Source of the DNA: Diplolepis rosae
Taxonomy: Eukaryota; Arthropoda; Insecta; Hymenoptera; Diplolepididae
Length of the DNA stretch: 64,000 nucleotides
Assembly (NCBI GenBank): GCA_030998225.1
Contig: JAPYXD010000308.1
Span: forward strand, 7,760,001-7,824,000
Reading direction: 5' to 3'
Shown: in pieces, positions 12,929 through 61,583 of the stretch
Layout of the letters: every line of letters starts with the position of its first letter
Position numbering within the stretch: the first letter of the stretch is position 1
Made by a program: the position numbers and the translations under genes
The notes under the pieces: model-generated
Databases searched by the model: none
Seen by the model: the letters and a program-made list of their open reading frames with translations, nothing else
What the model was told of the DNA's origin: nothing

Positions 12929-13028
12929 CTGAAACAAATATTTTTGAAAAAAAATTACTATTTTATAACAAAATTTGAATAAAAAATAAAATGTTACAAA
13001 TTTGAAATAAATTATACATATATTCAGA

Positions 13029-36510: not shown

Positions 36511-36606
36511 ACGGAGAAACTTTTACGAAAAGGAATTATAAGAGAATCCCAATCACCATTTAACTCCCCACTGTGGATAGTACCTAAAAAAGGTAATAAA
36601 TTACGA

Positions 36607-39930: not shown

Positions 39931-40705
39931 TCAGGCGAATTATACTCTGACGTCTCTTAAAGGGAATGTTTATATAGAAGAACAGTCAAAGGTTTACCTT
40001 TACCACGAAATATGGAAACTTGTTATTGGGATAAATTTCACTGCAAATGACCAACGACTTACTTGTATCGATACTACTATTAGATTCGCTGAAACAGCAT
40101 GCAATAACGAATGTCTACCTATGTATGAAGTACGTCTAGCTAGGAATCTATACAATAGATTAAGATACAAAAATACCATCCTCATAAAGCTCTTAGGAAA
40201 CAATTGTAAACTTTACAACAATTACGACTTACTCTATCTAGGAAACACAATTAAGTATAACACTTTTGACTATTTTAACGACACGTACGACATTCAATAT
40301 TCTGCCAGCGATTTAGCAAGTCTCGAAAATAGGCTCATTCAATTACCCAAAATAGTTGATAACGTCGAATTACAGCAAGCCAGGTTGAGTTTAGACGATA
40401 CGGAAAACATGCTAAACTCTATAGTTCAGCATAGGCGAATTAAGACAACGACAGAAGCAATCATGGATTACCTAAGCTATTTAGGATATGCGTCACTTGG
40501 ATTAGTCACACTGTACATTAGTTACAGATTCGGATTAATTGAATTGTTAAAAAATTGTATCCCGAAAAGAATATGCTTATTTTCCGTTAAAACTAAAATA
40601 GACACACCCACGCATGTGATCACTTACAATGCGAGCGTTCAGCCTTTGCTAACTGAACCACCCAAAAATAGACGTATCAAAATTGAGGGACTAAATTCAT
40701 TCTAA
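39893..40705 (+). CDS. env: element 2 short Env-like membrane protein
   Basis: A 270-residue ORF between integrase and the 3' LTR, where errantiviruses carry env. It starts with a hydrophobic signal-like stretch (LLALAMISQANYT), has several N-glycosylation sequons (NYT, NFT, NDT), and a membrane-spanning segment near residues 202-222 followed by a short basic tail. It is much shorter than the usual 450-500 residues and lacks a recognisable cleavage site, so the middle appears deleted. Confidence 0.65.
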   Translation: MQMITLLALAMISQANYTLTSLKGNVYIEEQSKVYLYHEIWKLVIGINFTANDQRLTCIDTTIRFAETACNNECLPMYEVRLARNLYNRLRYKNTILIKLLGNNCKLYNNYDLLYLGNTIKYNTFDYFNDTYDIQYSASDLASLENRLIQLPKIVDNVELQQARLSLDDTENMLNSIVQHRRIKTTTEAIMDYLSYLGYASLGLVTLYISYRFGLIELLKNCIPKRICLFSVKTKIDTPTHVITYNASVQPLLTEPPKNRRIKIEGLNSF

Positions 40706-44035: not shown

Positions 44036-45874
44036 TGTTACATCCCGTAAAAATTAATAGAAATTTAAAAATCGCGCCTACAGCAAGGCAACCCGACATA
44101 CAACCAGGCGATTGACGAACGTAACTCACATCATTGCGATGATAACTAATTGTCGATAGGATAATTACCTGAGATCGACAAGGCAGTTGAGTTGCATAAA
44201 ATAGGAAAACTACCTTACCGTCGGTAATGTAGAGAACCAAGCCAATAAAAAATTAATAATTATTTAATAAAAATAACAATAATATTCATTATTGTTAAGA
44301 ACAGCCATTAAATGATTGGTAATAATAATCAAACAATAGCACATAATAATCAGCGATAACCAATAATGGATAATCAATCAATAATATCAATCACATTATT
44401 GGGGATCCGCAAATTAGCTTGAATAATATTTTAGAATATAAACACCAAAAATTCATGTACTTCATAAATACTATAAGAATATAAACCGAGTTGTAAAATA
44501 ATAGATGAGTCAGTGCAATTATGACCTAGTACAATTGCACCGACCTGTCAACATATATATATATATATTAAATAACATAGCTGAAAAGACGAGAGAAAGA
44601 GATACCGCACCGAGCATCAATGGACTTTGATCCCGATAGTATGACCTGCGTGAGAACTAGCCGCGAGTTCACGAGTTTCCGCGACTGTCAGCAAGCATGG
44701 TCATCGACATTGCCGCCAGACGCGTGCCGATCAACAAATTATCACTGTACGTGCCGATCTACAAATTAGCAACGTACGTGCCGATCTACAAATTAGCAGT
44801 CACTCTCCCACTATGGGAATAATCAATAATATATAAACCCCAGATTTACCTCTGGAGGTTGTCTTTTCGCTAGTAGCTGTTCAGTCTTCAAGATCTTAAC
44901 GTCGGTAATCACTCCGTCCGCAAGTCATACTGTCGGTGTCACGAATTGACCCTTCGATATTCGTAAATCGGTATCTTACACAAGGAATACCTCGGTACTT
45001 GGTAAATAAAATCCCTGGTCCTTAAGTGGTGCAAGTCCGGTGGTCGTGAATTGATAAGTGCCGTTAAATACGTGTATCGTCGTATTAAGTCGAGTTCTGA
45101 GAGTTAAATCTACAGAAAACGAACTTAACCAGTGTTTAGCAAGCAAGTTGGATTGTCTGATACGCTTCCTGTACTACTTGACTAGCACTACTTAACTCCA
45201 GCCAGGATTGTGCCGTTATCCTTCTATCAACAAGGAGAAATATACGACAAAACTCTTTCTCTTGCCTTCTCAAGCAAGGAAAAAGCGTAAGTTATATATA
45301 TAAACATCTCAAAACTTATTATATTAACTATAACGCCTATTGTAGTGCGTGAATTGTATACCTAGGCATCTCAAAACCTGGTATATTAGCACAAAACATA
45401 CAAGTTACATATATAGGCATCTCAAAACCTGTATTAATAACTTATAGACGCACACACTTAAACGCGGAAGTCACATATATAGGCATCTCAAAACCTGTAT
45501 TATTGGCTTATATAGACGCGCACTTTTAATGCGTGAGTTACATATAATATAGGCATCTCAAAACCTGTATTACTAACTCATAAACGCATAAAACCCTTAA
45601 TATTGCCTTCTCATCCTGAGAAGTAGTATAAGTCATACACATAAGCATCTCAAAACTTATTGTATATCTATCTTTTAATTAATAAAGCTTGTACACCGCA
45701 ATATAACCAAATTTGTTATTATTGTGAACAACTCGAGCCGCATAGGTTTGACTAGTGACCACGATCCAACAAAAATATAAATAATCAGAATTTACCACTC
45801 TGATTTAATCAGCAAACTTTCCTCCCTATTCCTAATTTTCCCAACCTACCCTCGCCTTAGCTCGGGACGTAACA
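44036..45874 (+). repeat. element 3 5' LTR
   Basis: Starts TGTTACATCCCG and ends CGGGACGTAACA (inverted ends). It contains a TATA-like ATATATAAACC at about 44829, an arthropod initiator-like TCAGT at 44881, and AATAAA at 45681-45686. A series of GGCATCTCAAAACCTGTATTA repeats spans 45300-45660. The 3' LTR lacks about 100 bp present here (one such repeat and part of a 27 bp repeat). Confidence 0.95.
44724..44805 (+). promoter_or_regulatory. three 27 bp U3 repeats (enhancer-like)
   Basis: GTGCCGATCTACAAATTAGC-type units start at 44724, 44751 and 44778, just upstream of the TATA region. In the 3' LTR (60529, 60556, 60583) the third is truncated. Tandem U3 repeats commonly act as enhancers; function here is inferred. 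Confidence 0.6.
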
Positions 45875-47010: not shown

Positions 47011-47381
47011 GTAAAAATAAACAATTTTGTTATTTGCTAGCAATAAACAAATTTTATAATTGCCAGAATTGTTCACGCATTTTCATTAAATCTAACTTGT
47101 CCAATCTCATATCGTTCAAAATAACTTTTGTTAATTCTCTCAAACAACTATTAAAATAACAAGTGTAATATTCACTCAGGCGAATATTAAATACGTCTGA
47201 CCTGACCCCCTTTGCATCACTGAATTCATAGCATTCAAGGCTAAGAACGTAGAGTACCTGCATACATCGTGACCAAAATCGACAGTACGTTAAAACTACA
47301 GCATAAATTCTTCAACAAAAACAAATTGAAATTCAAATCGATAGTTATACAAAATAATAATAATAAAGTTGGGTACATTAT

Positions 47382-47732
47382 ATGACAACAAACCAAACTC
47401 AAATAATAATAAAACATCAAACCAATATTATAATTTCAGTATATTCTGACCTATTAAAAAATAAAATAGGAGATTTCTTGTACGATCCAACACTAAATAT
47501 CAATTTAATCGAAAAGGATAAAATAATCCCCGAAGTCAAAATAAACCATTTAAAAATCTACATACTACATAACGCCACTCTTTCAACAGTAGGATCAGTA
47601 GAAATCCCAATTTTGCGTAATTCAATTAAATTCAACATAATTAAACACGAAATAGGTACAGGTATTGCAGGAGTAATTGGAAAATCCTATATTTCTAAAT
47701 TGAATCTTCCTATTCCGGATTTAGTCAAATAG
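47382..47732 (+). CDS. retropepsin-like ORF upstream of gag, active site missing
   Basis: A 116-residue ORF with ATG start in the leader. It resembles this element's own protease: DPTLNINLIEK sits where the protease has DTGADVNIIK. LSTVGSVEIPI matches ISTLGTVQIKI, followed by NSIKFNII, and GVIGKSYI matches GILGREYL. The catalytic DTG is replaced by DPT, so proteolysis is not expected. It could be a decayed duplicated protease or a recruited non-catalytic module. Translation upstream of gag would need its own mRNA or leaky initiation. Confidence 0.55.
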   Translation: MTTNQTQIIIKHQTNIIISVYSDLLKNKIGDFLYDPTLNINLIEKDKIIPEVKINHLKIYILHNATLSTVGSVEIPILRNSIKFNIIKHEIGTGIAGVIGKSYISKLNLPIPDLVK

Positions 47733-47907: not shown

Positions 47908-49032
47908 ATGCCCAAAGACAGCATTCGATCAGACAAGACCGGAGCAACCGATTTTACCGGCGACATCTCGCGTACCTTAAACGACGCAATGGTAACATCG
48001 ATGGCAGAATGTTTTGCTATTCAACAAGGCATAATGAATGTGCCGATATTTAATGGTAAAAATATGCCAGTAAGAGACTTTATTCAGGACGTGATAAACG
48101 GAGAAGCCAGCATACCTGCCAACTGTGAAAAACAGTATATCAGGGCGGTTCTCTCCCGACTGAAGGGAGCAGCAAGAGATAGCACACATGGAAAAAGTTT
48201 TTTCTCCATGGAGGACTTGATTGGCCACCTCAAACAACGGTTTGCTCCTCACAAGTCATATACGTGGTACACACACGAAATTTCGAACATCAAAATGAAC
48301 CGTATCGAAAGTGTAAGTGAATACTACGATCGCCTTACATTATTAAAATCTGGTGCGCAAGCCGCACTAGAGGATAAATACGATAACGCGGAACTATTGT
48401 TAGCCCCTCTCAACGATTGTGCGTTAGAATCTTTTATTCGTGGACTTCCAGATGGACTCTCAGGAGCAGTAGAAAGCCGAAATCCAAATTCAATAGAAGC
48501 AGCTCTAAAATATGCCATAGAATACGAATCAAGACATCAGTTAAACCCTCAATCCCCACATAATAACTTTTATGACAGAAATTTTGCTGAACCTGCCTAC
48601 TCAGGAATGCGTGATCGCAGCCCTAGTCCGCACGTCCGATTTGTGGTCTCTCCAGAAAGAAATAGACCCAATGAAGATAGGCAAAATTCACCTAGATTAA
48701 ATAGACGAAACCATTTCCCAACGGAACAAAACTACCCCAGCAGTTTCCCCCACCACTATTCATACCCCCCATATCCACCCTATCAACCATATCCTTATTA
48801 CCCAAATCACCCTATTCCATATCCAAACCCTAACTACCCCTATAAGAACCCCACCAACCCCCCTCGTACGCCATCCCCATCTCCATCAAACACAGAACAT
48901 TTAAACTCCAGCCTTGCTCGCCGAGAGGACGCGACGACGAGCACAGACCAAAAAGAGCGTCAAAGCAGTGTGAGGATATTAATGCAACAAAGAAAGTCCT
49001 GTGCACAAAATTTAGGAGAGAATCACCAGTAG
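47908..49032 (+). CDS. gag: element 3 Gag
   Basis: A 374-residue structural polyprotein. Residues 1-45 are an N-terminal region. Residues about 45-200 are a helical capsid-like domain (FNGKNMPVRDFIQDV, LIGHLKQRFAPHKSYTW, SVSEYYDRLTLLKSG). A Pro/Tyr-rich tail (about 265-320) contains PYPPYQPYPYYPNHP. No CCHC knuckle is visible, unlike element 2; the zinc knuckle of this element is instead in the separate ORF at 53989. The start ATG at 47908 is the first Met of the frame. It ends at TAG 49030, overlapping the pol frame. Confidence 0.88.
   Translation: MPKDSIRSDKTGATDFTGDISRTLNDAMVTSMAECFAIQQGIMNVPIFNGKNMPVRDFIQDVINGEASIPANCEKQYIRAVLSRLKGAARDSTHGKSFFSMEDLIGHLKQRFAPHKSYTWYTHEISNIKMNRIESVSEYYDRLTLLKSGAQAALEDKYDNAELLLAPLNDCALESFIRGLPDGLSGAVESRNPNSIEAALKYAIEYESRHQLNPQSPHNNFYDRNFAEPAYSGMRDRSPSPHVRFVVSPERNRPNEDRQNSPRLNRRNHFPTEQNYPSSFPHHYSYPPYPPYQPYPYYPNHPIPYPNPNYPYKNPTNPPRTPSPSPSNTEHLNSSLARREDATTSTDQKERQSSVRILMQQRKSCAQNLGENHQ
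49008..49014 (+). promoter_or_regulatory. -1 ribosomal frameshift slippery heptamer
   Basis: A AAT TTA in the gag frame fits the X XXY YYZ rule. It lies 16 bases before the gag stop, and the protease continues in the -1 frame (TTT AGG AGA...). This explains gag-pol fusion. Confidence 0.65.
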
Positions 49033-49805
49033 TAGAGATCAGCTCACCCAATTTTAAAGAAAACAAGGTCCAATTACTAGTCGACACTGGAGCAGACGTA
49101 AACATAATTAAGCTAAGCTCACTCGACGAAGACATAATGGTATCACATAATGAAGCAATTGAAATAGCTGGTATAACCCAGAACAAGATTTCAACCCTTG
49201 GAACCGTTCAAATAAAAATTAAAAACTCAATAGTGACTTTTCACGTCACAGAACCAGATTTTCCTATCAACACCGACGGAATTCTAGGAAGAGAATACCT
49301 CCGACAAGAAAAGGTAGAGATTTCATTTTGGCACAACACAATCGTCACTCATTCCGACCCAACCAAACCCGTACCATTTGTAGACGCAGAATCCAAAATA
49401 GCCCAGGAAAATATGGAAGGCTACAAAGGGACAGCATTAGGACCTATCCAGATCAAAGCCAGAACTAAACGAGTAATCCCCGTAGAAGTCACAAATACAG
49501 AATTAAAAGAAGGTTATCTACCCTTAATTAAAACTACAGATGGAGTACTAGTGGGTGAAGCAGCTGTAACAAACGCAAACGGAATTTGCCACGTATTAGC
49601 AATCAACACAACTGAAAAAGATTTAAGCATTGAAATACCCCCACAAGAATTAATACCCTTCGAATATTATAATTTACCAGGAGAAGATTCAGACGAATAT
49701 TTTTTAGCCGAAAATTTCAAATTTGAAAGAGACAAAATAGTGGAAGTAATTGACAAATTACAGTTAGATCACCTCAATCAAGAAGAAAGGGAGCACGTCA
49801 TATAA
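49015..49805 (+). CDS. pol: element 3 Pol, protease and linker to RT
   Basis: The -1 frame after the slippery site encodes LLVDTGADVNIIK, the aspartic protease active site, and GILGREYL of the protease fold. The RT leader follows (LDHLNQEEREHVI). The frame is closed by TAA at 49803, in frame with the continuing RT, so this is a point nonsense mutation, not a natural end. Role: maturation of Gag-Pol. Confidence 0.9.
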
Positions 49806-50210
49806 ATAGTGCGAAAGTTTCCAGATAGCTTTTATCTGCCTGGGGAACCCCTAACCTCTACACATCTGGTGCAACATAAAATACATACAACAGACGAAAT
49901 ACCGATAAATACCCGCCCTTACCGGTTTTTACCAGCTCAGAAAGAAGAAATAGAACGCGTCATAACTAAAATGAAAACTGAAGGAGCCATTCAAAATTCA
50001 AAATCACCCTACAACTCTCCATTACTAATTATACCTAAAAAATTGGACCACACCGGAAAAAGAAAATGGAGAATAGTGATCGACTTCCGCCTTCTCAATG
50101 AAAAGACGATTGGCGATGCTTACCCTCTGCCAAATATTTCCGAAATTCTGGATCATTTAGGTAGAGCCCAATATTTTTCAGTATTTGACCTTGCGAGTGG
50201 ATTTCACTAG
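49806..50210 (+). CDS. pol: element 3 Pol, RT fingers
   Basis: In frame with the preceding segment: KFPDSFYLPGEPL, NTRPYRFLPAQKEEIERVI, WRIVIDFRLLNEKT and FSVFDLASGFH. A TAG at 50208 interrupts where the family has Gln (H-Q-I), consistent with a C-to-T change. Confidence 0.9.
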   Translation: MVRKFPDSFYLPGEPLTSTHLVQHKIHTTDEIPINTRPYRFLPAQKEEIERVITKMKTEGAIQNSKSPYNSPLLIIPKKLDHTGKRKWRIVIDFRLLNEKTIGDAYPLPNISEILDHLGRAQYFSVFDLASGFH

Positions 50211-53200
50211 ATAGAACTAGACCCTGCGGACAGACCTAAGACAGCTTTCTCATCATTAAATGGGCATTATGAATATGTCAGAATGCCCATGGGATTAAAA
50301 AATTCACCAGCCACATTCCAACGACTAATGGATCAAGTGTTAATAGGACTGCAAGGAACAGAACTATTCGTATACCTAGACGACATAGTTGTATACGCAA
50401 ACAATCTAGAAGAACACGGAAAAAAGGTAAGAAGACTCCTGAAACGATTAAAAGAAGCAAGCCTGTCTCTGCAACCCGAAAAATGTGAATTTCTATTTAA
50501 GGAAATAGCTTACTTGGGTCACATCATTAGCAGCGAAGGTGTAAAACCCGATCCAAAGAAGATAGAGGCTGTACAATGTTTTCCGCAACCCAAGAACCCT
50601 AAAAATATCAAACAATTCCTAGGGCTAGCAGGATACTACCGGAGATTTATAAAAGACTTTTCCGCAATAGCAAAACCGTTAACGAATCTTTTGAAAAAGG
50701 AAGCAGTATTTAAATGGGGAAAAGAAGAAGAAAAAAGTTTCAAAATTTTAAGACAAGCCCTATGTAATAGCCCTATTTTACAATATCCAGATTTTAATAA
50801 ACCATTTACAGTAACAACAGATGCATCAGGTTTCGCAATTGGCGCTGTATTAAGCCAAGAAGTCCAAAATATGGACCTGCCAGTAGCATACCTATCACGG
50901 GCACTAACTGGACCCGAGTTAAATTATTCAACCACTGAGAAAGAATGTTTAGCAGTGTTATACGCAATAGCAAAATTCAGACCCTATTTGTATGGAAGAA
51001 AATGCACTCTTATGAGCGACCATGAGCCACTAAAATGGATAGACTCAGTCAAGGACCCAGGGCAAAGACTGATTCGATGGCGATTAAAGTTACAAGACTA
51101 CGAGTATACATTTAAGTATAAACCGGGCAAACTAAACATTAATGCCGACGCCCTCTCTCGAAATCCAGTAGAAAATAACGCAGCAGCATTAAAACAAGAA
51201 TTACCCCCCAGAATAATGCCGATGTTCACCCGACAGTCTAAAAAAATTGAATCCAGCACTAAACCTCAAACAAAAACATCAGTCTCTGGCCTACTGAACA
51301 AGCCCTCAATTTTCACCAGAAAGGGAGCGAAGCCAAAGGGTGAACTTTCAAACCCATCTATTACGAAGCAGCTCAACCCCACTCTATCTCGATCTAAATC
51401 CAGTACTTCTACTACAGCAGAAGTAGATAAAAGTACCATCAGTAAACGACTGATCCGTCGACGAGCAGAAGAAGAAAGAGTCAAGATAAAACCTGACTAT
51501 AAAGAAGACAGTAGCTCTGATGATACAGAAAAAGACTTGGAACCACCTCCAATTCTGCGAAAAAGAAAAAGTTTACTACCCAGTTTAGATCTACCCCCTG
51601 CAGCATATCCACCCTCAACTATACCAAAAAGTGCCCCAGCAAATGTACCACAGGCCGAAACTGAATTCCCTTTTGAGGAACAAGAAGAACCAATTCTTAC
51701 AGTACAACAACAAGAAGGACCTATAAGAATCGTTAGTCCACCTATAAGCGACAGTGAAGATAGTCCTAGTGATGATGACAATAAACATACAGAAGAAAGT
51801 AAACCTAAGCCATCAAAACAGAGCCTGGAAAACTCATTTTTATTGTTTGAAAAATCTTTAAAGGCTCGCGAAAATTGGCTAGAAAAAGAAAACACTGAAA
51901 AAGATGCCCCTATCCTCGAGATCACAGCCGTTTCGGAAGGAGAAGACAATCAGGAACTCCTAGAAGCCATTGAAGAACTAGAACCAGAAAGTGAAACTGA
52001 ATTTGATAACCGATTTAAAACAGCACAGAGATTGATGAAAGAAAAACAAAAAATGGGAAAGGAGGTGAACCCAGAAACAAAGGAAAATTTGGACCCCGGA
52101 ATCCCATCTTCTGATGAAGAAGATCAACCTACCCCCAATCCACCTCTGCGGACCCGGAAAAGCGTAACTTTTAGACCTGAGATACCTGCAACACCCGACA
52201 TTCTAGCAAACGTTAGTCCTTCAGCATTCAAAGAACCTAAAGTGATATCGACCCCATATTCAAGTAATAAAGAAGACCACCCCAATACAGTAATTTCATC
52301 CACTAGATACAAGCCACGCAGAATGGACATGGAAACTCCTCAATTTTCGGAAAAAATCTCTGAAAACACACATAATGATAAGACTAAAAACACTTCTAAG
52401 CTTATCACCAGCATCCCCCCAGAATTACCCACCGGTTGTAGCTCAAACGCTCCTACGACAAACTTCAAAGTTCTTAGTTGCAGAGAAAACTTAACATATT
52501 TAAGGAATAATTATGTACATTTTCTTTCTGCTGATGTTAAAGTAACTACCCCTGTAGGAAGATTACTAATCGACATCGGAGCAATAGACCCACAGGAATT
52601 AAAAATTAAACAGCCAAAAATAGAAGAAGTATTGATTACCCCCAGAGGACAATATAATGTATATTCACTGATAATAAAAAACCGACATTTCGACGACATA
52701 GATAAAACCATTCTCCAAACAGCCCTCCATAATTTAAGAGTGGCCCTATTCAGAGAAAACATCACCGAATTTCGTATTTCGCGACAAGGAGACTTGACAG
52801 ACGACCTGACGAAGGAAGAACTGCTCAAAATGATAACCAACGAGTTTGAAAACAGTAATATAAAGATAAGTATGTGTTACCGAAATGTAAGTACACCCCC
52901 TGAGGAGTCACGTCTAGAAATAATTTCTGAAAACCACAATAGTAAGATCGGAGGCCATAAAGGAGTTAACAAAACATACCAAAGAATTCGAGAAAGGTAC
53001 TTTTGGCCAGGAATCAAAGAACAAGTCACTGATTTTGTAAGAAAATGCAAAATTTGTCAAGAACAAAAAATTGTAAGAGCCAAAATTCATGAACCCATGT
53101 TGATAACAGATACACCCCTGGATACCTTTGATAAAGTTTCTTTAGACACTGTAGGCAAATTACCAACCACCCCAGACGGCAATAAGCACATATTAACCAT

Positions 53201-53951
53201 GCAGGACAACCTTTCAAAATACTGTATAGCAGTACCAATTCCAGACATCTCAGCAGCAACAATAGCCCATGCATTAGCAAAAAACCTTATTTCTCAGTAT
53301 GGAGCACCAAAAGCAATTCTCACCGATAAAGGAAAAGGATTTGTGAACAACCTATTGAGTAATTTATCAAAAATATTCGGAATAAAACAAATAACCACCT
53401 CAGGCTATAGACCACAATCTAATGGTTCATTAGAAAGAAGCCATGCCGTACTAATGGATTATGTTAGAGCCTATGCAGAAAATTATGACGATTGGGATCA
53501 ACTGCTACCCTTCGCCATGTTTGTTTATAACACATCTGTCCACAGTGCAACAAAATTCACCCCATTCGAATTAGTGTTCGGAAAAATAGCCCGTACCCCT
53601 AGTTCATACCCCAATTACGAAAAATTAGAGACCTACGGTTCATATTTACAAGAATTAATTTGCAGATTAACAGAAATTAAAAATATGGCAGCTGACAATT
53701 TGATAAAGGCAAAACAAAACTCCAAACTAAATTACGACGCTAAAGCAAGATCGTTCCTTGGAAAAGTAGGAGATAAAGTCTATGTACAAAAGGAAGTAAA
53801 AAAACGCGGTAAATTAGACAGCAAATATTATGGACCGTGCGAAATTATTAAACTCTTGGACAAACACACAGCGATTTTGAAAGACAAAAAACGAAACCCT
53901 ATTCCAAAAACACGTAGACAAACTCAAAATAGCTTACGAATAATCACTTAA
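50211..53951 (+). CDS. pol: element 3 Pol, RT palm to integrase with extra domains
   Basis: Continues RT after the TAG; MPMGLKNSPATFQRL starts at 50283. Residues below count from there: YLDD box LFVYLDDIVVYANN near 35; RNase H with TTDASGFAIGAVLS, STTEKECLAVLYAIAKF and NADALSRNP to about 300. About 300-725 is an acidic, Ser/Pro/Glu-rich linker. About 728-867 is a macro-domain-like segment. Integrase follows: H2C2 zinc domain (HNSKIGGHKG...CKICQEQK), core VSLDTVGKL, LTDKGKGFV, NGSLERSHAV, and a GPCEIIKLLDKHTAIL GPF/Y module. The >1200-residue frame is uninterrupted. The linker and macro-like insert are unusual for gypsy-class pol. Confidence 0.92.
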   Translation: MELDPADRPKTAFSSLNGHYEYVRMPMGLKNSPATFQRLMDQVLIGLQGTELFVYLDDIVVYANNLEEHGKKVRRLLKRLKEASLSLQPEKCEFLFKEIAYLGHIISSEGVKPDPKKIEAVQCFPQPKNPKNIKQFLGLAGYYRRFIKDFSAIAKPLTNLLKKEAVFKWGKEEEKSFKILRQALCNSPILQYPDFNKPFTVTTDASGFAIGAVLSQEVQNMDLPVAYLSRALTGPELNYSTTEKECLAVLYAIAKFRPYLYGRKCTLMSDHEPLKWIDSVKDPGQRLIRWRLKLQDYEYTFKYKPGKLNINADALSRNPVENNAAALKQELPPRIMPMFTRQSKKIESSTKPQTKTSVSGLLNKPSIFTRKGAKPKGELSNPSITKQLNPTLSRSKSSTSTTAEVDKSTISKRLIRRRAEEERVKIKPDYKEDSSSDDTEKDLEPPPILRKRKSLLPSLDLPPAAYPPSTIPKSAPANVPQAETEFPFEEQEEPILTVQQQEGPIRIVSPPISDSEDSPSDDDNKHTEESKPKPSKQSLENSFLLFEKSLKARENWLEKENTEKDAPILEITAVSEGEDNQELLEAIEELEPESETEFDNRFKTAQRLMKEKQKMGKEVNPETKENLDPGIPSSDEEDQPTPNPPLRTRKSVTFRPEIPATPDILANVSPSAFKEPKVISTPYSSNKEDHPNTVISSTRYKPRRMDMETPQFSEKISENTHNDKTKNTSKLITSIPPELPTGCSSNAPTTNFKVLSCRENLTYLRNNYVHFLSADVKVTTPVGRLLIDIGAIDPQELKIKQPKIEEVLITPRGQYNVYSLIIKNRHFDDIDKTILQTALHNLRVALFRENITEFRISRQGDLTDDLTKEELLKMITNEFENSNIKISMCYRNVSTPPEESRLEIISENHNSKIGGHKGVNKTYQRIRERYFWPGIKEQVTDFVRKCKICQEQKIVRAKIHEPMLITDTPLDTFDKVSLDTVGKLPTTPDGNKHILTMQDNLSKYCIAVPIPDISAATIAHALAKNLISQYGAPKAILTDKGKGFVNNLLSNLSKIFGIKQITTSGYRPQSNGSLERSHAVLMDYVRAYAENYDDWDQLLPFAMFVYNTSVHSATKFTPFELVFGKIARTPSSYPNYEKLETYGSYLQELICRLTEIKNMAADNLIKAKQNSKLNYDAKARSFLGKVGDKVYVQKEVKKRGKLDSKYYGPCEIIKLLDKHTAILKDKKRNPIPKTRRQTQNSLRIIT
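52464..52883 (+). other. macro-domain-like segment inside Pol
   Basis: About 140 residues between RNase H and integrase with the pattern of TARG1/OARD1-type macro domains. First comes a strand with YVHFLSADVKVTTPVGRLL, where the family has AHCVSxDxxMGxGIA. Then KQPKIEEVLI, VYSLIIKNR (family YYLITKxR), TALHNLRVAL, and ISRQGDLTDDLTKEELLKMI (family MPxIGCGLDxLxWexVxxmI). It ends with NIKISMCYR (family DIKITVYTL). Macro domains bind or remove ADP-ribose. The glycine-rich GCGLD site is altered to GDLTDD, so catalysis is uncertain. Assigned from pattern only. Confidence 0.6.
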
Positions 53952-53988
53952 TATTAGAAACTAATAGTCTTCTCATTATAGGAAGGAC

Positions 53989-54582
53989 ATGTCTGGTTTC
54001 ACAACATTGGACTCACCACTCCCCAGAGAACAAATCTATCCCACATACATACATCCCAAAGGAGATGTGGAACACCTCAAGAATCCAAAGGGAGCGTTGG
54101 AAGAGCTATCAGCCGAATACGGGTTTACCAAACCCTCTTATATCCTAATAAAGTCAGAAGGACCAGCTCATAATAGGACTTTTTACGCATCATGTATTAT
54201 AAAAGATTGTAAACGTAATAAGATTTTTTCAGATAGTAGTAATGGCGCAAACAAACTTAAAAATGCTGAACATGAGGCAGCAAGGAAAATTCTAAAAAAA
54301 CTAGAGGATAATTATTATTTTAGCGAAGAGCGAAATATTAATAATGAAGTAGAAGATATTTTTGTTTTGTGTCAAGACAAAGAAAGTAGGATGCTCATTA
54401 AACTATATAAGTGGGAACAATGTTGCGAATATTGTTATTTACGAGGACATAAAGTAGAAAATTGTTCAAGAAAAATAAAACGTAATAAAAATTTTAAAGA
54501 AAATTACACTGTTACGGAAGAGGACTTTTGGGATCCTGTAGATAACATTAAAAATCCAAATTTAATTTATATCACTCAATAA
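53989..54582 (+). CDS. dsRNA-binding-domain protein with CCHC zinc knuckle
   Basis: A 197-residue ORF between pol and env. Residues 32-106 match a double-stranded-RNA-binding domain: helix 1 NPKGALEELSAEYGF, the strand PSYILIKSEGPAHNRTF with the GPAHxxxF signature (58-65), a three-strand sheet, and helix 2 KLKNAEHEAARKILKKL with conserved Ala and Lys positions. Residues 146-159 are a CCHC knuckle, CEYCYLRGHKVENC. A plausible 3' splice site, TCTTCTCATTATAG, ends at 53980, nine bases before the ATG, suggesting a spliced subgenomic mRNA. The frame is intact. The likely role is dsRNA/RNA binding, possibly RNAi suppression; this is inferred, not shown. Confidence 0.85.
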   Translation: MSGFTTLDSPLPREQIYPTYIHPKGDVEHLKNPKGALEELSAEYGFTKPSYILIKSEGPAHNRTFYASCIIKDCKRNKIFSDSSNGANKLKNAEHEAARKILKKLEDNYYFSEERNINNEVEDIFVLCQDKESRMLIKLYKWEQCCEYCYLRGHKVENCSRKIKRNKNFKENYTVTEEDFWDPVDNIKNPNLIYITQ

Positions 54583-54876
54583 ATGTCCCACACAATTCTC
54601 GAACTACACCTATAGACCCTGTAACCACGTGTAGAATATTCAAAATGAACAAAATAAAATGTATTAAAATCATAAAATTTAATTTTGATAAATCAAAAAC
54701 CCCAAATTCAACAGCACAGTAAATTAAAAGAGTAAAGGGATAAGATTAAATAAAACCTATCTTGAAAAGTACTTATATATATTTTCTGATACGCAGCGTC
54801 ATCCAGTAGCAGAATGGACCAACTAAACCCCACCCAAGGCCGAGAAAATGGACCTGGATCTTGATCGTCATTATTT
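54583..54876 (+). other. pol/env intergenic segment with putative env acceptor
   Basis: AT-rich. A pyrimidine-rich TATATTTTCTGATACGCAG near 54778-54796 could be the acceptor for env mRNA. A signal-peptide-like hydrophobic stretch (KWTWILIVIIFA) is encoded at about 54846-54882 in a frame different from env, so env has a frameshift near 54880. Confidence 0.45.
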
Positions 54877-56187
54877 TTGCAACCCGTCACCCCGACACAA
54901 TATGAAGTTCAACCATTGAGAAACAACCCTGGACTATTTTACGCCAAAGTTGAGCCCTTGCGTATTACCAATACATATTGGAGAATTGTCGTGTATATGG
55001 ATCCACAGCACCTACAAGCCCATCTCCAATCTAAAAACATATCAACTGATATAAACAACGTATATTCAACATGTTTCGACCAATCCCTAGAAGAAGACTG
55101 CAGAAGTGAAATTAGACTAGACCTGTTGAATGGAAAAGTCACACAAATCGAAAATAACTATGAAGAATTAAAAAATATGTTAGCAGAAATAAAACAAGAT
55201 ACATCAGAAGCAGAAAACCCACCCCCAAGTATGCAGAAACGAAGAGCACCCCTATTAGGCTTTATCGGATCAATTATTGGACCAGTGATAGGAGTGATGA
55301 CTTCCGACGACGCAGAAGAATATGATAACGCTATCAACGAACTACATGACAGACAAAATAATCTTAGCAAAATTTTGAGAATACAGACCCACATTGTCAA
55401 ATCAGAAATCAACAACATTCACCTAGAATTGAATCAAAAATCGCAAGAAATCGCAAACATACAACAACAACTAAACGAGACCATCAAAAACATAGAATCG
55501 CATAATCAATTCTGGAGTAACACCTTATATTTCAGAAAAATAAGACAATGGGATGACCATATCGAGATAAAACTTAATCACTTAGCCGAAAGTTTAAAAC
55601 AATTTATAAAAATAGTAGAAGCAGCACGAAAAAACAGGTTACATCCACTCCTTCTCACTAAAGAACAACTCCAAGAAATCATTACCGAAATACATTTTAA
55701 ATTAAGTGAAAACGAATTTCCAATACCCACCTCACATGTTCGAGCAGAAGAACTATCAAAATTAGGAAAAACAGATGTTAGAATCAGCTCTGGACGACTG
55801 CTCATCGCCGTCGACATACCCTTACTTGATAAGGCAGGGTATCAGCTTTATGAAATTTATGCACATCCAGTGTATCAACAAATATCTCCGAATACAACAG
55901 CACCTATTTATATAATACCTAAAACTCCGTATATTGCCCTGGCAAATGATGAAAGAAAATTCTTTCTCGTAAGCAAAGAATATTATGATAATTGTCAAAA
56001 AACCTTTTACAACACCATCTGCGAAGACACCCAGCCCAAGCACGAAGTTTCCACAACCAACTCATGCGAGTGTTTGATGTTGATAAGACCATCAAAGGAT
56101 ACCATTCACCTTTGTGACATCAGGATGAAAATAGAAGAAGAAATGTATTGGAACTACATCCCTTCGTTATCTGCCTGGATTTATTAA
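54877..56187 (+). CDS. env: element 3 Env, main part
   Basis: A 436-residue frame (TTG at its open edge; true N-terminus is upstream in another frame). Pattern of insect errantivirus/F-type fusion envelopes: a surface-like region with sequon and Cys residues, a dibasic KRR at residues 121-123 followed by a hydrophobic Gly/Ile-rich stretch (124-140), then a long coiled coil (about 150-260) and a C-terminal Cys-rich part (CQKTFYNTICEDT, CECLMLI). The frame ends at TAA near 56185, before the membrane anchor, which lies in the next ORF. Frame breaks at both ends make this copy defective. Confidence 0.8.
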   Translation: MQPVTPTQYEVQPLRNNPGLFYAKVEPLRITNTYWRIVVYMDPQHLQAHLQSKNISTDINNVYSTCFDQSLEEDCRSEIRLDLLNGKVTQIENNYEELKNMLAEIKQDTSEAENPPPSMQKRRAPLLGFIGSIIGPVIGVMTSDDAEEYDNAINELHDRQNNLSKILRIQTHIVKSEINNIHLELNQKSQEIANIQQQLNETIKNIESHNQFWSNTLYFRKIRQWDDHIEIKLNHLAESLKQFIKIVEAARKNRLHPLLLTKEQLQEIITEIHFKLSENEFPIPTSHVRAEELSKLGKTDVRISSGRLLIAVDIPLLDKAGYQLYEIYAHPVYQQISPNTTAPIYIIPKTPYIALANDERKFFLVSKEYYDNCQKTFYNTICEDTQPKHEVSTTNSCECLMLIRPSKDTIHLCDIRMKIEEEMYWNYIPSLSAWIY

Positions 56188-56295
56188 ACAAAAAATCCAG
56201 AGCCAATAAGCATCAACTGCATAAAAGGAAAACTGGAAAAAGGCTACCTCAGCAATTCAGGACTACTCCGATTAGGTACAGGATGTACTGCAAGA

Positions 56296-56781
56296 ATGAA
56301 ATATACCACCCTAACCGGAACTCAGATTAATAAAAGGACAGAAGAATATATTTACAACCCTAATTTTACTTTCAATATAACTGAAATTCTTCCAAAGTTG
56401 GACACAATTCAACAACTTCCTAAAATAAAACCTTTTACGTGGGAAAAATCTCACATAGGAAATTGGAAAAGGCTCCACGCAGACGAATCACTTTCAACCA
56501 TAGAAGAACAATTGACAGAATTCGAAGAACAAAATTTTAATAAACCATTACATAATAAATACTGGACAGGAGGATCTAGTGCAATAATAATCATAACAAT
56601 AATAATTATGATTTATTTTGGAAAAAATTCAATCCTAAAATGTTTAAAAAACCCAAAAAGAACCCATCAAAAGGAAGAGGCACCAACAGAACTACAATAC
56701 TTACAACCATTAAACATCCCTGAAATTCGAGTACAAACAGAAACTACTAAATTTCCAATTCGAAATATCCGAATTGCCTAA
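56296..56781 (+). CDS. env: element 3 Env C-terminus with membrane anchor
   Basis: A 161-residue frame continuing env after a frame break between about 56185 and 56295. It contains a stem region, then a membrane-spanning segment near residues 95-113 (IIIITIIIMIYFG) and a Lys-rich cytoplasmic tail. Confidence 0.75.
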   Translation: MKYTTLTGTQINKRTEEYIYNPNFTFNITEILPKLDTIQQLPKIKPFTWEKSHIGNWKRLHADESLSTIEEQLTEFEEQNFNKPLHNKYWTGGSSAIIIITIIIMIYFGKNSILKCLKNPKRTHQKEEAPTELQYLQPLNIPEIRVQTETTKFPIRNIRIA

Positions 56782-56795
56782 AATACCACCTTCTG

Positions 56796-56833
56796 TGTCA
56801 CCGAGGACGCTGACAAATCTAAGGAAGGAGGAC
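56796..56833 (+). repeat. first copy of duplicated polypurine-tract region
   Basis: TGTCACCGAGGACGCTGAC, seven bases, then AAGGAAGGAGGAC, just after env. It recurs at 59809-59846 directly before the 3' LTR. The pair brackets a 3.0 kb cassette. Confidence 0.75.
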
Positions 56834-57848
56834 ACGGAAAGTTACAGTCAAAAAAAAAATTTTTTCATCAAAAAATAAATAAAAATGAAAGAATTCTACA
56901 GTACCAGTCAGCGAAGCCTGTAATTTGATTAACCTGCGAAGCATTTATGCAGTCCAGCAGGATAAACTTACCTCAAAGAGATAAGGCGCTCCCGACAAAA
57001 TGGCTAGCGCGAGAAAAATAATCATGAGAAGAGAAGAAACAGTAAGCAGTATGGCACCGAGCATGCAACCTGACACCACAGCATAGAGGAAGAACAACGA
57101 TCCGCCTCTTTACGTCAATGGGAGCGACTAGATGGCCAGCACGCCTATCATCGTCAGCAACATTCTCACCAGTATGTTTTCCTGATCAAAAGTTCGTTCC
57201 ATTTTTATTGAAAGTTAATAATAAAAGCTTAATTAAAAGAAATTCATTTCTCTTAATTAAGAATTAATAATAAATAATTTTATTTAAAAAAAAAAAAAAA
57301 GTAAGAGGAAGAAAATTTAATATTAAAATTAATTAAGGGACAACGAACCTTTGACCAACAAAACACTAGTAATTATAGAAGTATGAATAATATATATGTA
57401 CGCATATGTATAGATTATTGAAAAAGAAAACCCTATAGGGTATACACATATAATTTTACACACATATGCCTACATAGATATGTGGATAATACTAAAAATA
57501 TTTAGTCAAATTAAAAATAGTCAGCAAACTTAAACACTATTTAAGATAGAAAAAGGAAATGGCTTGGAAGGATAAATCAAAGAAAATAAAATGTATTGAA
57601 TTGATACAATTACAAACCCCACGAAATAATTATGAGAACAAAAAAAAATAAAATTCTATTAAATTGAATCAAATCAATACATTCTACCGATTGATCAGTT
57701 TAAATTCCTAATATATATTTAAATGTTCAAAAAAGAGAAATAACAGGGTTTTACAAGCCAAAATCTGTAAATACTACACATATAAAATATACATAAAATA
57801 CGTAAAACATACACACACAAACACATACAACAAAACCACACGAACACG
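56834..57848. other. AT-rich part of the 3' cassette
   Basis: No supported coding region on either strand; A-rich tracts and short CA/TA repeats. It would be the 3' flank (or 3' UTR) of the antisense gene candidate. Confidence 0.5.
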
Positions 57849-57946
57849 TCAGATCCGTGGATGATACGGAGAATTCCGCAGTCCTGGAAACGCCCGATGT
57901 CCTCTGATCACTGGCCGACGGCAGTAAATTACCTCACGCCGCGGTA
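57849..57946 (-). CDS. antisense gene candidate, exon 5 (terminal)
   Basis: Preceded in the minus direction by the acceptor GTCTTTTTCAG. It continues in phase from exon 4 (G + TA CCG CGG...) and reads 32 codons of basic sequence (VPRREVIYCRRPVIRGHR) to TGA at 57851-57849. The in-phase join followed by a stop in a GC-richer block supports a real exon. Confidence 0.5.
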
Positions 57947-58036
57947 CTGAAAAAGACAAATAATTAATAAAAAATCTAAAATTTGAAAAGAAAAAGGGTA
58001 GTACCAAACAAAAAAAAGGGAAAGGAGTTTAATTAC

Positions 58037-58143
58037 CTTCGTAACTAGCCAGTAAGGACCCGCAGGAACATCGAACAGGCTCCGACGTCGATATCCTCAC
58101 GTATCGTCCACAGCGACAGAACCTATCTTCGGTACCCTGGACG
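58037..58143 (-). CDS. antisense gene candidate, exon 4
   Basis: A 107 bp exon-like block. Acceptor TTTGTTTTCAG before 58143 and donor GAAG/GTAATT after 58037. The peptide includes FCRCGRYVRISTSEPVRCSC, a CxC...CxC zinc-ribbon-like pattern. It joins exon 3 in phase 2 (GG+C) and exon 5 in phase 1. GC-rich compared with the flanking introns. Confidence 0.55.
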
Positions 58144-58250
58144 CTGAAAACAAACAATGAATTATAAAGAAATGAACAATGAATCAAAATATATATACAC
58201 AAACAATAATAATAAAAATAATGATAGTAATAAAAAAAAATGATATTTAC

Positions 58251-58572
58251 CCCAGACAAATGTCAGAAGGAACCGAATGGCAGCAAACTCGGCGATACTG
58301 CGCAGGCAAGGGCGAGATTTCCTCCACCACCAGTCGGTTCAACCTTTCTACTATGTGAAGGGACTCCCGACAAGCCTCCGCCAGAGTGTGCAGATCAACA
58401 TGCACACTTCGCTCGAGTCCACGGTTTGCTCCACCACTCGACTGTTCTCCTGACACCAGTTCCTGCGTCAGGAACCATAAAAAACGCATCCAAGGCACCA
58501 AAGAGGAGGTTAAGTTGTACACCTGCCTCATAGAGCTGGCAGGTGGAATTTGAGGCGCACGAATATAAGAAC
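58251..58572 (-). CDS. antisense gene candidate, exon 3
   Basis: A 322 bp block with strong acceptor TTTTTTTCTTTTCAG and donor GGG/GTAAAT. It is open for 107 codons: RAPQIPPASSMRQVYNLTSS, then LTQELVSGEQSSGGANRG, LHTLAEACRESLHIVERLNR and CCHSVPSDICLG. No known domain recognised. Composition (about half G+C) contrasts sharply with the AT-rich provirus and introns. Confidence 0.55.
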
Positions 58573-58698
58573 CTGAAAAGAAAAAAAGAATTTTAATTAA
58601 TTGCACATATGCATAAGAAGCAACTAAACAAAATTAGTAATAAAAACAACGACATTGGAATTCAAAAAAATAAATTAAGAGCATCAGCCACACACATG

Positions 58699-59160
58699 TC
58701 AACAGATTCCTACGAAGAACCCTCGAAGCTGAAAATCGGCAGCCTTCAACAAAATTTGCCGTTTAAGGGCAAGGGATGACACACTCAGCAAAAACCCCGT
58801 GCGACGAGCATCCAACCTATGAATTACCGTGAAGTCCGAAACAGACACAGACCATCCAAAAAGTTCGGAACAACAAGCCGCGAAGGTTGAGAGAATAGTA
58901 TCCGCCCTGACACCCCAAACAGCAACGTGGTAAATCCCTAAGCGCTCCTCTATCGACGAAATGCGCAGAGATAAACTATCCGATCTCGAAACGCATCGCC
59001 CAGCACCAGTCGAGAAATCAAAGAAATTTATATATGCATCTGAAGAACTGCCAGAAGAAGACGCGTCTCCCCCGTTAACCGGATATTGCTGAGCCACATC
59101 ATCCAGCAATGATAAATCAAAATCAGCAACGGCCTCTTCAGATCCAAGAACGTCCATCAT
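58699..59160 (-). CDS. antisense gene candidate, exon 2 / ORF
   Basis: An ORF of 153 codons from ATG 59160, open further upstream to 59277. It has an acidic Ser-rich N-terminus (DDVAQQYPVNGGDASSSGSS), then a compact C-terminal region (VAVWGVRADTILSTFAACCS, FTVIHRLDARRTGFLLSVSS) that faintly recalls the RRM-like fold of retroelement ORF1 proteins. It reaches TGA at 58699. The only in-phase donor towards exon 3 is a weak ATCT/GTTGAC, so this junction is uncertain. Confidence 0.45.
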   Translation of the reverse strand: MMDVLGSEEAVADFDLSLLDDVAQQYPVNGGDASSSGSSSDAYINFFDFSTGAGRCVSRSDSLSLRISSIEERLGIYHVAVWGVRADTILSTFAACCSELFGWSVSVSDFTVIHRLDARRTGFLLSVSSLALKRQILLKAADFQLRGFFVGIC

Positions 59161-59310
59161 TCGGCCCGAGAAGTAACAAAAAAGGGAAACAACGAAGGCA
59201 CTCGCGAAGACACTTTTGAGGAATAATGGGAATAAACCGAAGCTATTATATAACACACCCCACTTAACGAAACACAAAAAAAAACAGAAGGAAGGAGAAG
59301 ATCACTCACC

Positions 59311-59431
59311 TAGATCACGAGGTACCCCAAGATCCACCAACAGATTGTAGGGCAAATGAGAGTTGTTTTCAATCCAAAGGGAGTAGGGGATGGTGGCTGA
59401 CCCGCTCGAAGATGATCCCTGGTTCTCCATG
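59311..59431 (-). CDS. antisense gene candidate, exon 1
   Basis: ATG at 59431 opens 40 codons (MENQGSSSSGSATIPYSLWI...) and runs into a consensus donor CTAG/GTGAGT at 59311. Joining to exon 2 in frame would require a poor acceptor (GATCTGAAG near 59140), so it may be an alternative first exon or the gene may be damaged. Confidence 0.4.
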
Positions 59432-59474
59432 GTTAATTATTAACTGACAGCTAACACATCTTCGACACAAAAGA

Positions 59475-59804
59475 GTGCAGCTGCCCATCTCACAAACTGA
59501 TGATGATCACAAAATCTTACTATGCACAATTGGAACTGAAGAAATTAATAAACTAAATTATGAAGAATATGAGACAAATGCAAGGAATAGTATCACTTAC
59601 CTGAATCGCTTGGGACTTCTGGATGACACAAGACACGATACACTAGACATAACAAAAATACACTCATTTCACAGAATCCGCACAAATATAGAAAACGATA
59701 ACTTGCGAAAAATAAGATTAAATTCAAACAAGAATAAGGAAAATAAACTGATCGTTATTAACAATAAAATGAGTTACGAGCGTCAATCGCCAACTAATTA
59801 CTAA
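59475..59804 (+). CDS. 109-codon plus-strand ORF before the polypurine tract
   Basis: No recognised family. Hydrophilic, Asn/Lys-rich (EEINKLNYEEYETNARNSIT), with a GTG at the open edge and no good Met start. Position between the cassette and the 3' LTR might make it an accessory exon, but AT-driven chance is equally possible. Confidence 0.25.
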   Translation: MQLPISQTDDDHKILLCTIGTEEINKLNYEEYETNARNSITYLNRLGLLDDTRHDTLDITKIHSFHRIRTNIENDNLRKIRLNSNKNKENKLIVINNKMSYERQSPTNY

Positions 59805-59808
59805 CTTT

Positions 59809-59846
59809 TGTCATCGAGGACGATGACTATTCTAAGGAGGGAGGAC
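59809..59846 (+). promoter_or_regulatory. polypurine tract, second copy of duplicated region
   Basis: AAGGAGGGAGGAC abuts the TGTTAC of the 3' LTR; the preceding TGTCATCGAGGACGATGAC repeats 56796-56814. Confidence 0.8.
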
Positions 59847-61583
59847 TGTTACATCCCGTAAAAATTAATAGAAATTTAAAAATCGCGCCTACAGCAAGGC
59901 AACCCGACATACAACCAGGCGATTGACGAACGTAACTCACATCACTGCGATGATAACTACTTGTCGATAGGATAATTACCTGAGATCGACAAGGCAGTTG
60001 AATTGCATAGAATAGGAAAACTACCTTACCGTCGGTAATGTAGAGAACCAAGCCAATATAAAATTAATAATTATTTAATAAAAATAACAATAATATTCAT
60101 TATTGTTAAGAACAGCCATTAAATGATTGGTAATAATAATCAAACAACAGCACATAATAATCAGCGATAACCAATAATGGATAATCAATCAATAATATCA
60201 ATCATATTATTGGGGATCCGCAAATTAGCTTGAATAATATTTTAGAATATAAACACCAAAAATTCATGTACTTCATAAATAATATAAGAATATAAACCAA
60301 GTTGTAAAATAATAGATGAGTCAGTGCAATTATGACCTAGTACAATTGCACCGACCTGTCAACATATATATATTAAATAACATAGCTGAAAAGACGAGAG
60401 AAAGAGATACCGCACCGAGCATCAATGGACTTTGATCCCGATAGTATGACCTGCGTGAGAACTAGCCGCGAGTTCACGAGTTTCCGCGACTGTCAGCAAG
60501 CATGGTCATCGACATTGCCGCCAGACGCGTGCCGATCAACAAATTATCACTGTACGTGCCGATCTACAAATTAGCAACGTACGTGCCGATCACTCTCCCA
60601 CTATGGGAATAATCAATAATATATAAACCCCAGATTTACCTCTGGAGGTTGTCTTTTCGCTAGTAGCTGTTCAGTCTTCAAGATCTTAACGTCGGTAATC
60701 ACTCCGTCCGCAAGTCATACTGTCGGTGTCACGAATTGACCCTTCGATATTCGTAAATCGGTATCTTACACAAGGAATACCTCGGTACTTGGTAAATAAA
60801 ATCCCTGGTCCTTAAGTGGTGCAAGTCCGGTGGTCGTGAATTGATAAGTGCCGTTAAATACGTGTATCGTCGTATTAAGTCGAGTTCTGAGAGTTAAATC
60901 TACAGAAAACGAACTTAACCAGTGTTTAGCAAGCAAGTTGGATTGTCTGATACGCTTCCTGTACTACTTGACTAGCACTACTTAACTCCAGCCAGGATTG
61001 TGCCGTTATCCATCTATCAACAAGGAGAAATATACGACAAAACTCTTTCTCTTGCCTTCTCAAGCAAGGAAAAAGCGTAAGTTATATATATAAACATCTC
61101 AAAACTTATTATATTAACTATAACGCCATCTCAAAACCTGTATTAATAACTTGTAGACGCACACACTTAAACGCGGAAGTCACATATATAGGCATCTCAA
61201 AACCTGTATTATTGACTTATATAGAAGCGCACTTTTAATGCGTGAGTTACATATAATATAGGCATCTCAAAACCTGTATTACTAACTCATAAACGCATAA
61301 AACCCTTAATATTGCCTTCTCATCCTGAGAAGTAGTATAAGTCATACACATAAGCATCTCAAAACTTATTGTATATCTATCTTTTAATTAATAAAGCTTG
61401 TACACCGCAATATAACCAAATTTGTTATTATTGTGAACAACTCGAGCCGCATAGGTTTGACTAGTGACCACGATCCCACAAAAATATAAATAATCAGAAT
61501 TTACCACTCTGATTTAATCAGCAAACTTTCCTCCCTATTCTTAATTTTCCCAACCTACCCTCGCCTTAGCTCGGGACGTAACA
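59847..61583 (+). repeat. element 3 3' LTR
   Basis: Partner of 44036-45874 with the same ends, TATA region and AATAAA (61390-61395). It is shorter by deletion in the 27 bp repeats and in the GGCATCTCAAAACC repeat block. Confidence 0.95.

What the first reader, a model, noticed from the sequence alone, without database searches (positions are those of the whole stretch)
53989..54582. LTR element encodes a stand-alone dsRNA-binding protein: candidate RNAi suppressor
An intact ORF between pol and env has a near-consensus dsRBD (NPKGALEEL, GPAHNRTF, final Ala/Lys helix) plus a CCHC knuckle. Gag of the same element lacks a knuckle, so the nucleic-acid-binding function may have moved here. dsRBD proteins are well-known silencing suppressors in insect viruses; finding one in an endogenous retrovirus suggests direct antagonism of host siRNA defence. 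The domain call is strong, the role is inference.
Basis: partly seen in the sequence, partly recalled or inferred. Interest (0 to 1): 0.9.

Follow-up and report, generated by a model that had tools for sequence, protein, structure and literature searches.

The report
dsRNA-binding-fold accessory gene in retroelement
A virus-like jumping element carries a small extra gene that joins a double-stranded-RNA-binding fold to a retroviral-type zinc knuckle; the gene family is real and conserved, but some residues normally needed to grip double-stranded RNA are changed, so a role in handling the element's own RNA is at least as likely as blocking the host's RNA-silencing defence.

Summary
ORF 53989-54582 (197 aa) lies between pol and a Baculo_F-type env in a 17.5-kb Ty3/gypsy-type element. 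It scores as a dsRBD (Pfam dsrm E=1.6e-10) and its model matches solved dsRBDs. It carries the only CX2CX4HX4C knuckle on the element's + strand; 20 of 20 Gag homologues, some fragmentary, lack one. There are 31 homologues; 15 long rows form four clusters, 40-63% identical between clusters.

At the main RNA-contact site "near-consensus" is wrong: KKxAK reads (L/I)(K/R)xAE in most rows. The last position is Glu in 22 of 26; it matches K89 of the iridovirus suppressor 340R, whose K89A mutant lost most or all suppressor activity. A helix-1 Lys might compensate, as in the fly helicase MLE.

I favour an RNA-binding accessory protein acting on the element's own RNA (0.45) over an RNAi suppressor (0.27). 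No DNA of relatives was reached, so dN/dS, host and expression are untested. Precedents: plant Tekay aORF, Cer1 CERV, IIV-6 340R.

The parts
44036..45874 (+). 5' LTR (TGTTAC...GTAACA); flanked on the left by CTAA
   Evidence: self-blastn and boundaries read by eye; 41 mismatches in 1475 and 8 in 465 aligned columns to the 3' LTR, gaps apart
59847..61583 (+). 3' LTR, preceded by a purine-rich tract 59834-59846 and followed by CTAA (4-bp target-site duplication)
   Evidence: by eye
47908..49032 (+). gag; no zinc knuckle
   Evidence: Retrotrans_gag E=0.0026, below Pfam's cut-off; 20 homologues, 0 of 20 with CCHC
48846..53951 (+). pol (PR, RT, RNase H, integrase) in one frame, interrupted by stops ending at 49805 and 50210 in this copy
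   Evidence: ORF pieces; RVP, RVT_1, RT_RNaseH, Integrase_H2C2, rve
53979..53981 (+). possible splice acceptor (TAG) just before the ORF
   Evidence: 10/15 pyrimidines, weak. N-terminal extensions of P0004, P0005 and P0019 read through codons compatible with an acceptor at the same place, inference from protein letters
53989..54582 (+). accessory ORF, 197 aa: dsRBD + CCHC knuckle + acidic tail
54085..54303 (+). dsRBD (residues 33-105)
   Evidence: Pfam dsrm E=1.6e-10; 10-residue pLDDT means of 74-95 for residues 31-100; Foldseek 1di2 E=5.5e-6
54253..54270 (+). residues 89-94 (KLKNAE), holding the degenerate equivalent of the KKxAK RNA-contact motif (residues 90-94)
   Evidence: residue tally over 26 rows
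54424..54465 (+). CCHC zinc knuckle (residues 146-159)
   Evidence: complete in 12 of 14 A3 rows that span it (rows printed)
54499..54579 (+). conserved acidic C-terminal tail (EEDFWxP...NLIY; residues 171-197)
   Evidence: net charge -2 to -8 in 11 of 11 full-length rows
54865..56781 (+). env (Baculo_F), interrupted by a stop ending at 56187 in this copy; start region not clearly open

Best explanation
The ORF is a genuine accessory gene of an env-bearing Ty3/gypsy-type lineage. It most likely makes a small RNA-binding protein that acts on the element's own RNA: a nucleocapsid-like or export/packaging cofactor supplied outside Gag. The CCHC knuckle and adjacent basic patch would bind single-stranded or structured element RNA. 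The dsRBD would add weak structured-RNA binding or protein contact, and the conserved acidic tail a partner-binding site. Shown: fold, knuckle, position, conservation at protein level, knuckle-less Gag. Inferred: RNA binding, partner, spliced expression, role.
For: dsRBD and CCHC in one ORF. Gag without CCHC in the element and in 20 of 20 Gag homologues. In 10 of 10 pairwise comparisons (not independent) of five representatives, identity in the knuckle segment exceeds that in the dsRBD (for example 65% against 49%, P0001-P0008). Knuckle segment net +5 or +6 in 11 of 11 full-length rows. Of residues W142, C145, C146, C149, H154, C159 and W181, 33 of 34 readable positions are kept in five representatives that are 46-52% identical overall. 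A neutral frame diverging to 48% identity would be expected to gain about 12 stops in a simple count. The dsRNA-grip residues are by contrast degenerate, which fits a duty other than sequestering dsRNA. P0018 joins integrase sequence to the start of the dsRBD, consistent with the same gene order in another copy.
Against: No RNA-binding, expression or packaging data. The linker (residues 109-144) is nearly as conserved as the knuckle segment and exceeds it in two of ten comparisons (P0001-P0021, P0001-P0019), so conservation does not single out the knuckle. Knuckle-less Gags occur, by recall, in errantiviruses without such a protein. P0019 and P0022 lack the second Cys, and dropped rows P0006 and P0012 lack other ligands. 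The knuckle was not modelled with confidence. A dsRBD is an unusual choice for a nucleocapsid. 340R shows that stand-alone dsRBD proteins of this size can be suppressors.
Confidence: 0.45

Rival explanations
1. Viral-type suppressor of RNAi: the protein binds long dsRNA or siRNA and shields it from Dicer-2 and RISC loading, as IIV-6 340R does.
For: The top-ranked viral model is a 173-aa iridovirus DRBM protein (E=1.4e-6; the superposition over the whole chain is poor, rmsd 20.9), and the nudivirus DRBM protein at rank 2 fits over 76 columns at rmsd 1.5. The described suppressor 340R likewise has about 30 aa before and 73 aa after its dsRBD, and the tail is needed (passages); that the iridovirus hit is a 340R relative is my inference from name and length. 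TARBP2 and Loqs dsRBDs are the nearest solved sequences. LTR elements are siRNA targets in flies (passages). A Lys in helix 1 is kept in 25 of 26 rows, and helix-1 lysines stand in for a missing third Lys in MLE, DHX9 and RNase III (passages).
Against: The 340R K89-equivalent is Glu in 22 of 26 rows (25 of 29 with the three dropped rows that reach it). K89A gave about 12-fold weaker affinity for long dsRNA, no protection from Dicer-2, and slight (long dsRNA) or no (siRNA) suppressor activity. The first Lys is Ile or Leu in 26 of 26 rows; in MLE dsRBD1, mutating two lysines of KKxAE abolished RNA binding. The GPxH His is kept in only 11 of 26. The dsRBD is not strongly basic (net 0 to +5 in 11 rows).
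Confidence: 0.27
2. Type-B-like dsRBD: it contacts proteins (self, Gag, or the Dicer-2/Loqs/R2D2 machinery) and hardly binds dsRNA; it could act as a decoy adaptor or as an assembly factor.
Confidence: 0.15
3. Rev/CERV-like factor: a nuclear protein from a spliced mRNA that exports the unspliced genomic RNA.
For: Cer1, an LTR retrotransposon, needs such a protein (CERV) made from a spliced mRNA (abstract). The ORF is distal and preceded by an acceptor-like site.
Against: Similarity to CERV was not tested; no strong donor was found; no localisation data.
Confidence: 0.08
4. Passenger or decayed gene without function in present elements.
For: This copy is defective in pol and env. Several listed homologues are truncated. 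One open frame here is unremarkable given an LTR divergence of about 2.5%.
Against: Frame, length and knuckle kept across four clusters, although databases list open frames only.
Confidence: 0.05

Closest known systems
IIV-6 340R and other viral dsRBD suppressors of RNAi (PMC4231766, passages read)
   Same: small virus-type protein, one dsRBD with N-terminal and C-terminal extensions; an iridovirus DRBM protein is the top-ranked viral model
   Different: here the K89-equivalent is Glu, there is a CCHC knuckle, and the carrier is an LTR element; activity unknown
Plant Tekay LTR-retrotransposon aORF proteins, reported as structurally similar to a DRBM protein (PMC11728184, passages read)
   Same: additional ORF in an LTR element with DRBM-like structure; silencing modulation suggested
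   Different: plant elements; the passages report the match for the maize and sorghum proteins and no hit for the sunflower one; no knuckle mentioned in the passages; homology to this family not tested
Cer1 CERV (PMC10309623, abstract and section list read)
   Same: extra regulatory protein of an animal LTR element, made from a spliced mRNA; splicing is only proposed here
   Different: no sequence comparison made; domain make-up not compared
Retroviral/Ty3 nucleocapsid CCHC knuckles (recalled)
   Same: CX2CX4HX4C spacing, basic flank
   Different: not part of Gag; fused to a dsRBD
TARBP2/Loquacious/Xlrbpa dsRBDs
   Same: nearest solved sequences and folds; with the family profile TARBP2 stays first and Loqs falls to E=0.05
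   Different: single dsRBD; KKxAK degenerate
Maleless (MLE) dsRBD1, KKxAE (PMC6486548, passages read)
   Same: Glu replaces the last Lys; a Lys is present in helix 1
   Different: MLE keeps both first lysines, whereas here the first is Leu/Ile

Membership tests
dsRBD (PF00035) | profile score above Pfam's gathering cut-off | tested here: met
   41.8 bits against 23; 24 of 26 rows match at E<=0.01
[quoted passage not shown]
   H33-43, E50-57, E64-73, E78-83, H90-108; Foldseek and VIA matches
Type A (dsRNA-binding) dsRBD | KKxAK in helix 2 | tested here: not met
   LKNAE in the window; 26 of 26 lack the first Lys, 22 of 26 have Glu at the last
Type A (dsRNA-binding) dsRBD | GPxH loop | tested here: inconclusive
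   GPAH in the window ORF; His in 11 of 26 rows, Asn in 13
Type A (dsRNA-binding) dsRBD | binds dsRNA | not testable with these tools
   needs EMSA
dsRBD-type viral suppressor of RNAi (340R type) | Lys at the 340R K89 position | tested here: not met
   E94 here; 340R K89A loses most or all suppressor activity; the register rests on the AA92/A97-A98 anchor, my reading
dsRBD-type viral suppressor of RNAi (340R type) | suppresses silencing in a reporter assay | not testable with these tools
   experiment
Retroviral-type CCHC zinc knuckle | CX2CX4HX4C | tested here: met
   54424-54465; complete in 12 of 14 spanning A3 rows
Retroviral nucleocapsid | domain of Gag | tested here: not met
   separate ORF after pol; Gag has none
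Env-bearing Ty3/gypsy element (errantivirus-like) | LTRs, gag, PR-RT-RH-IN order, Baculo_F env, 4-bp TSD | tested here: met
   the gag profile match is below cut-off
Env-bearing Ty3/gypsy element (errantivirus-like) | RT phylogeny within Errantivirus | not tested
   no reference set fetched
CERV/Rev-like export factor | product of a spliced mRNA | tested here: inconclusive
   weak acceptor, no strong donor
CERV/Rev-like export factor | exports genomic RNA | not testable with these tools
   experiment

The most novel reading that the evidence does not exclude
An animal endogenous-retrovirus lineage carries a dedicated counter-defence gene, plausibly captured from a host Loqs/TARBP-type dsRBD protein and reshaped, which blunts small-RNA silencing of the element by binding its RNA or the Dicer-2/Loqs machinery. 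The macro-like domain in its pol would be a second counter-defence module.
Probability: 0.22. Interest if true: 0.87.

Novelty: new variant of a known kind. Interest (0 to 1): 0.62.

Why it matters
Retroelements in flies are controlled by piRNAs and siRNAs (passages), yet among the papers that my searches listed I saw none, by title or start of abstract, on an insect LTR element with a protein that answers back (CC-licensed PMC only, long lists cut at 20). A conserved dsRBD+CCHC accessory family makes that question directly testable. If it is instead an RNA-handling cofactor, it shows a nucleocapsid-type function carried by a separate, dsRBD-linked protein, an arrangement that I did not see in those lists.

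Tried and rejected
Chance ORF: rejected (profile E-value, 31 homologues, conserved knuckle). Host gene outside the element: rejected, because the ORF lies inside matched LTRs with a 4-bp TSD and P0018 joins it to integrase in another copy. Intactness of this copy as evidence of selection: rejected; with LTR divergence of about 2.5%, roughly 0.45 stops would be expected in 197 codons since insertion, so an open frame is likelier than not (my arithmetic, indels ignored).

Led nowhere: scans of viral contigs with P0001, the A2 alignment, an RT/RNase H piece and an env piece, and of genome contigs with A2, gave no relative, so there is no DNA for dN/dS. The host was not identified. Fold matches do not separate RNA-binding from protein-binding dsRBDs. 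Splice-site scoring was not decisive. The best PDB matches to TARBP2/Loqs do not prove an origin; no tree of dsRBDs was made. Papers on accessory domains in retrotransposons, bdelloid ORF3s and plant additional ORFs (passages) mention no dsRBD gene in the places shown; the passages of the insect-ERV paper PMC12992720 hold no occurrence of 'dsRBD' or 'accessory'. Literature lists were cut: 20 of 54, 20 of 278, 20 of 53, 20 of 28, 20 of 60. Rows dropped from A3: P0006, P0011, P0012, P0017, P0018, P0032 (partial or fused). Of those reaching helix 2, 3 of 3 have Glu; of the four reaching the knuckle, P0011 and P0017 keep it, P0006 and P0012 do not.

Full report
WHAT IS THERE. The window holds a 17.5-kb LTR element: LTRs at 44036-45874 and 59847-61583, ending TGTTAC...GTAACA, flanked by the 4-bp duplication CTAA, with a purine-rich tract before the 3' LTR (ends read by eye). 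Gag (weak profile match), then protease, RT, RNase H and integrase follow in the usual Ty3/gypsy order, then the ORF in question, then an env with a Baculo_F match. This copy is defective: pol carries in-frame stops ending at 49805 and 50210, and env one ending at 56187. The ORF 53989-54582 is open. That alone proves little: LTR mismatches (41 in 1475 and 8 in 465 aligned columns, partly overlapping pieces, gaps apart) imply a fairly recent insertion.

THE KNUCKLE. CX2CX4HX4C occurs once in the element's three + frames, at 54424-54465. Elsewhere in six frames of the window it occurs only at 35479, in the gag region of another gypsy-like element, a natural positive control. The 20 Gag homologues found all lack the pattern (0 of 20). 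Several of these are fragments, so absence is weaker for those, and whether their elements carry the dsRBD ORF is unknown.

THE FAMILY. A single-sequence search gave 17 homologues; a profile search gave 31, the 17 included, from sources without organism names. I aligned 25 of the 31 with the window ORF (A3). Fifteen rows of 158 aa or more fall into four clusters at 65% identity; between-cluster identity is 40-63%. Most rows share an N-terminal IYP...PKG segment, the dsRBD, a YFFSEE...LIKLYKW linker, CCEYCYLRGH, a basic patch, and an acidic EEDFWxP...NLIY tail where the sequence reaches that far. The knuckle is complete in 12 of 14 A3 rows that span it; P0019 and P0022 lack the second Cys. Identity is higher in the knuckle segment than in the dsRBD in all 10 comparisons of five representatives, but the linker is nearly as conserved and exceeds the knuckle in two of them. 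If the frame were unconstrained, divergence to 48% identity would bring about 12 expected stops (chance of none about 7e-6 in a simple count). This is softened by the fact that databases list open frames only. P0018 joins integrase sequence (87% identical over 158 aa to the window's pol) to the start of the dsRBD, apparently through an internal deletion, which supports the same gene order in another copy.

The finding calls the dsRBD near-consensus and names a final Ala/Lys helix. Canonical dsRBDs bind across the major groove with a conserved KKxAK motif (passages). Here that motif reads LKNAE. Across 26 rows the first Lys is Ile or Leu in 26, the second is Lys or Arg in 25, and the last is Glu in 22, Lys in 3 and Gln in 1. 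The GPxH loop keeps its His in 11 of 26. In IIV-6 340R, a stand-alone dsRBD suppressor, K89 lies three residues before the conserved AA pair, the position that is E94 here (my register). K89A lowered affinity for long dsRNA about 12-fold, failed to protect dsRNA from Dicer-2, and left slight (long dsRNA) or no (siRNA) suppressor activity (passages). An iridovirus DRBM protein of the same length as 340R is the top-ranked viral model; that it is a 340R relative is inference. Type B dsRBDs, which lack two critical lysines of that region, bind proteins instead (passages). Against a firm loss of RNA binding: MLE has KKxAE and binds RNA with help of a helix-1 Lys, though there mutating two lysines of KKxAE abolished binding by dsRBD1 (passages); this family keeps a helix-1 Lys (K34) in 25 of 26 rows. 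That K34 sits in the same register as the MLE lysine is my inference.

MECHANISM. I therefore favour a protein that handles the element's own RNA: knuckle and basic patch as the main nucleic-acid contact, the dsRBD as a weak or specialised structured-RNA or protein contact, the tail as a docking site. Expression would need splicing or another device, since the ORF is distal. An acceptor-like TAG lies at 53979-53981, but 11% of YAGs in the window score as well or better and no good donor was seen. The suppressor view stays open at 0.27, and a protein-binding dsRBD at 0.15.

NOVELTY. In my searches (CC-licensed PMC, seen as listings, long ones cut at 20, and passages of a few papers) I saw no animal LTR element with such a gene. 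The nearest precedent is plant: Tekay additional-ORF proteins of maize and sorghum reported as structurally similar to a DRBM protein, with silencing modulation suggested (passages). Extra genes in LTR elements are a known kind (bdelloid ORF3s, passages; Cer1 CERV, abstract). I rate this a new variant of a known kind.

LIMITS. Host unnamed, no genome search answered, no DNA of relatives, so no dN/dS, no copy number, no expression.

Noticed in passing
window 52515-52874 (+), inside pol between RNase H and integrase: A macro-like domain: phmmer match to O-acetyl-ADP-ribose deacetylase 1/C6orf130 (4j5q, E=3.6e-4, 120 residues), preceded by a long charged, low-complexity-looking stretch. Pfam does not call it. 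One literature search for macrodomains in LTR elements listed two papers, unrelated by title.
   Followed up: partly
window 47367-47732 (+), between 5' LTR and gag: A 121-aa open frame similar to the element's own protease (BLASTP E=9e-6, 19% over 98 aa) in which the active-site DTG aligns to DPT: a possible stand-alone pseudo-protease or a decayed duplicate. Pfam gives no match.
   Followed up: partly
window 56782-59846 (+): About 3 kb between env and the 3' LTR, A-rich on the + strand, with an open frame of 118 aa at 59448-59804 that has no Pfam match.
   Followed up: no
window 18598-22566 (-), 35002-40705 (+), 42507-43322 (-): Two further gypsy-like elements and mariner-like transposase sequence (by eye), one stretch of which appears inserted in the pol of the element at 35.0-40.7 kb; the gag region of that element has a CCHC.
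   Followed up: no
window 7785-16034: An inverted repeat of about 3.8 kb at 99.6% identity with a spacer of about 0.6 kb.
   Followed up: no
window 28045-33299: Two inverted arrays of a roughly 248-bp repeat, possibly the ends of another mobile element.
   Followed up: no
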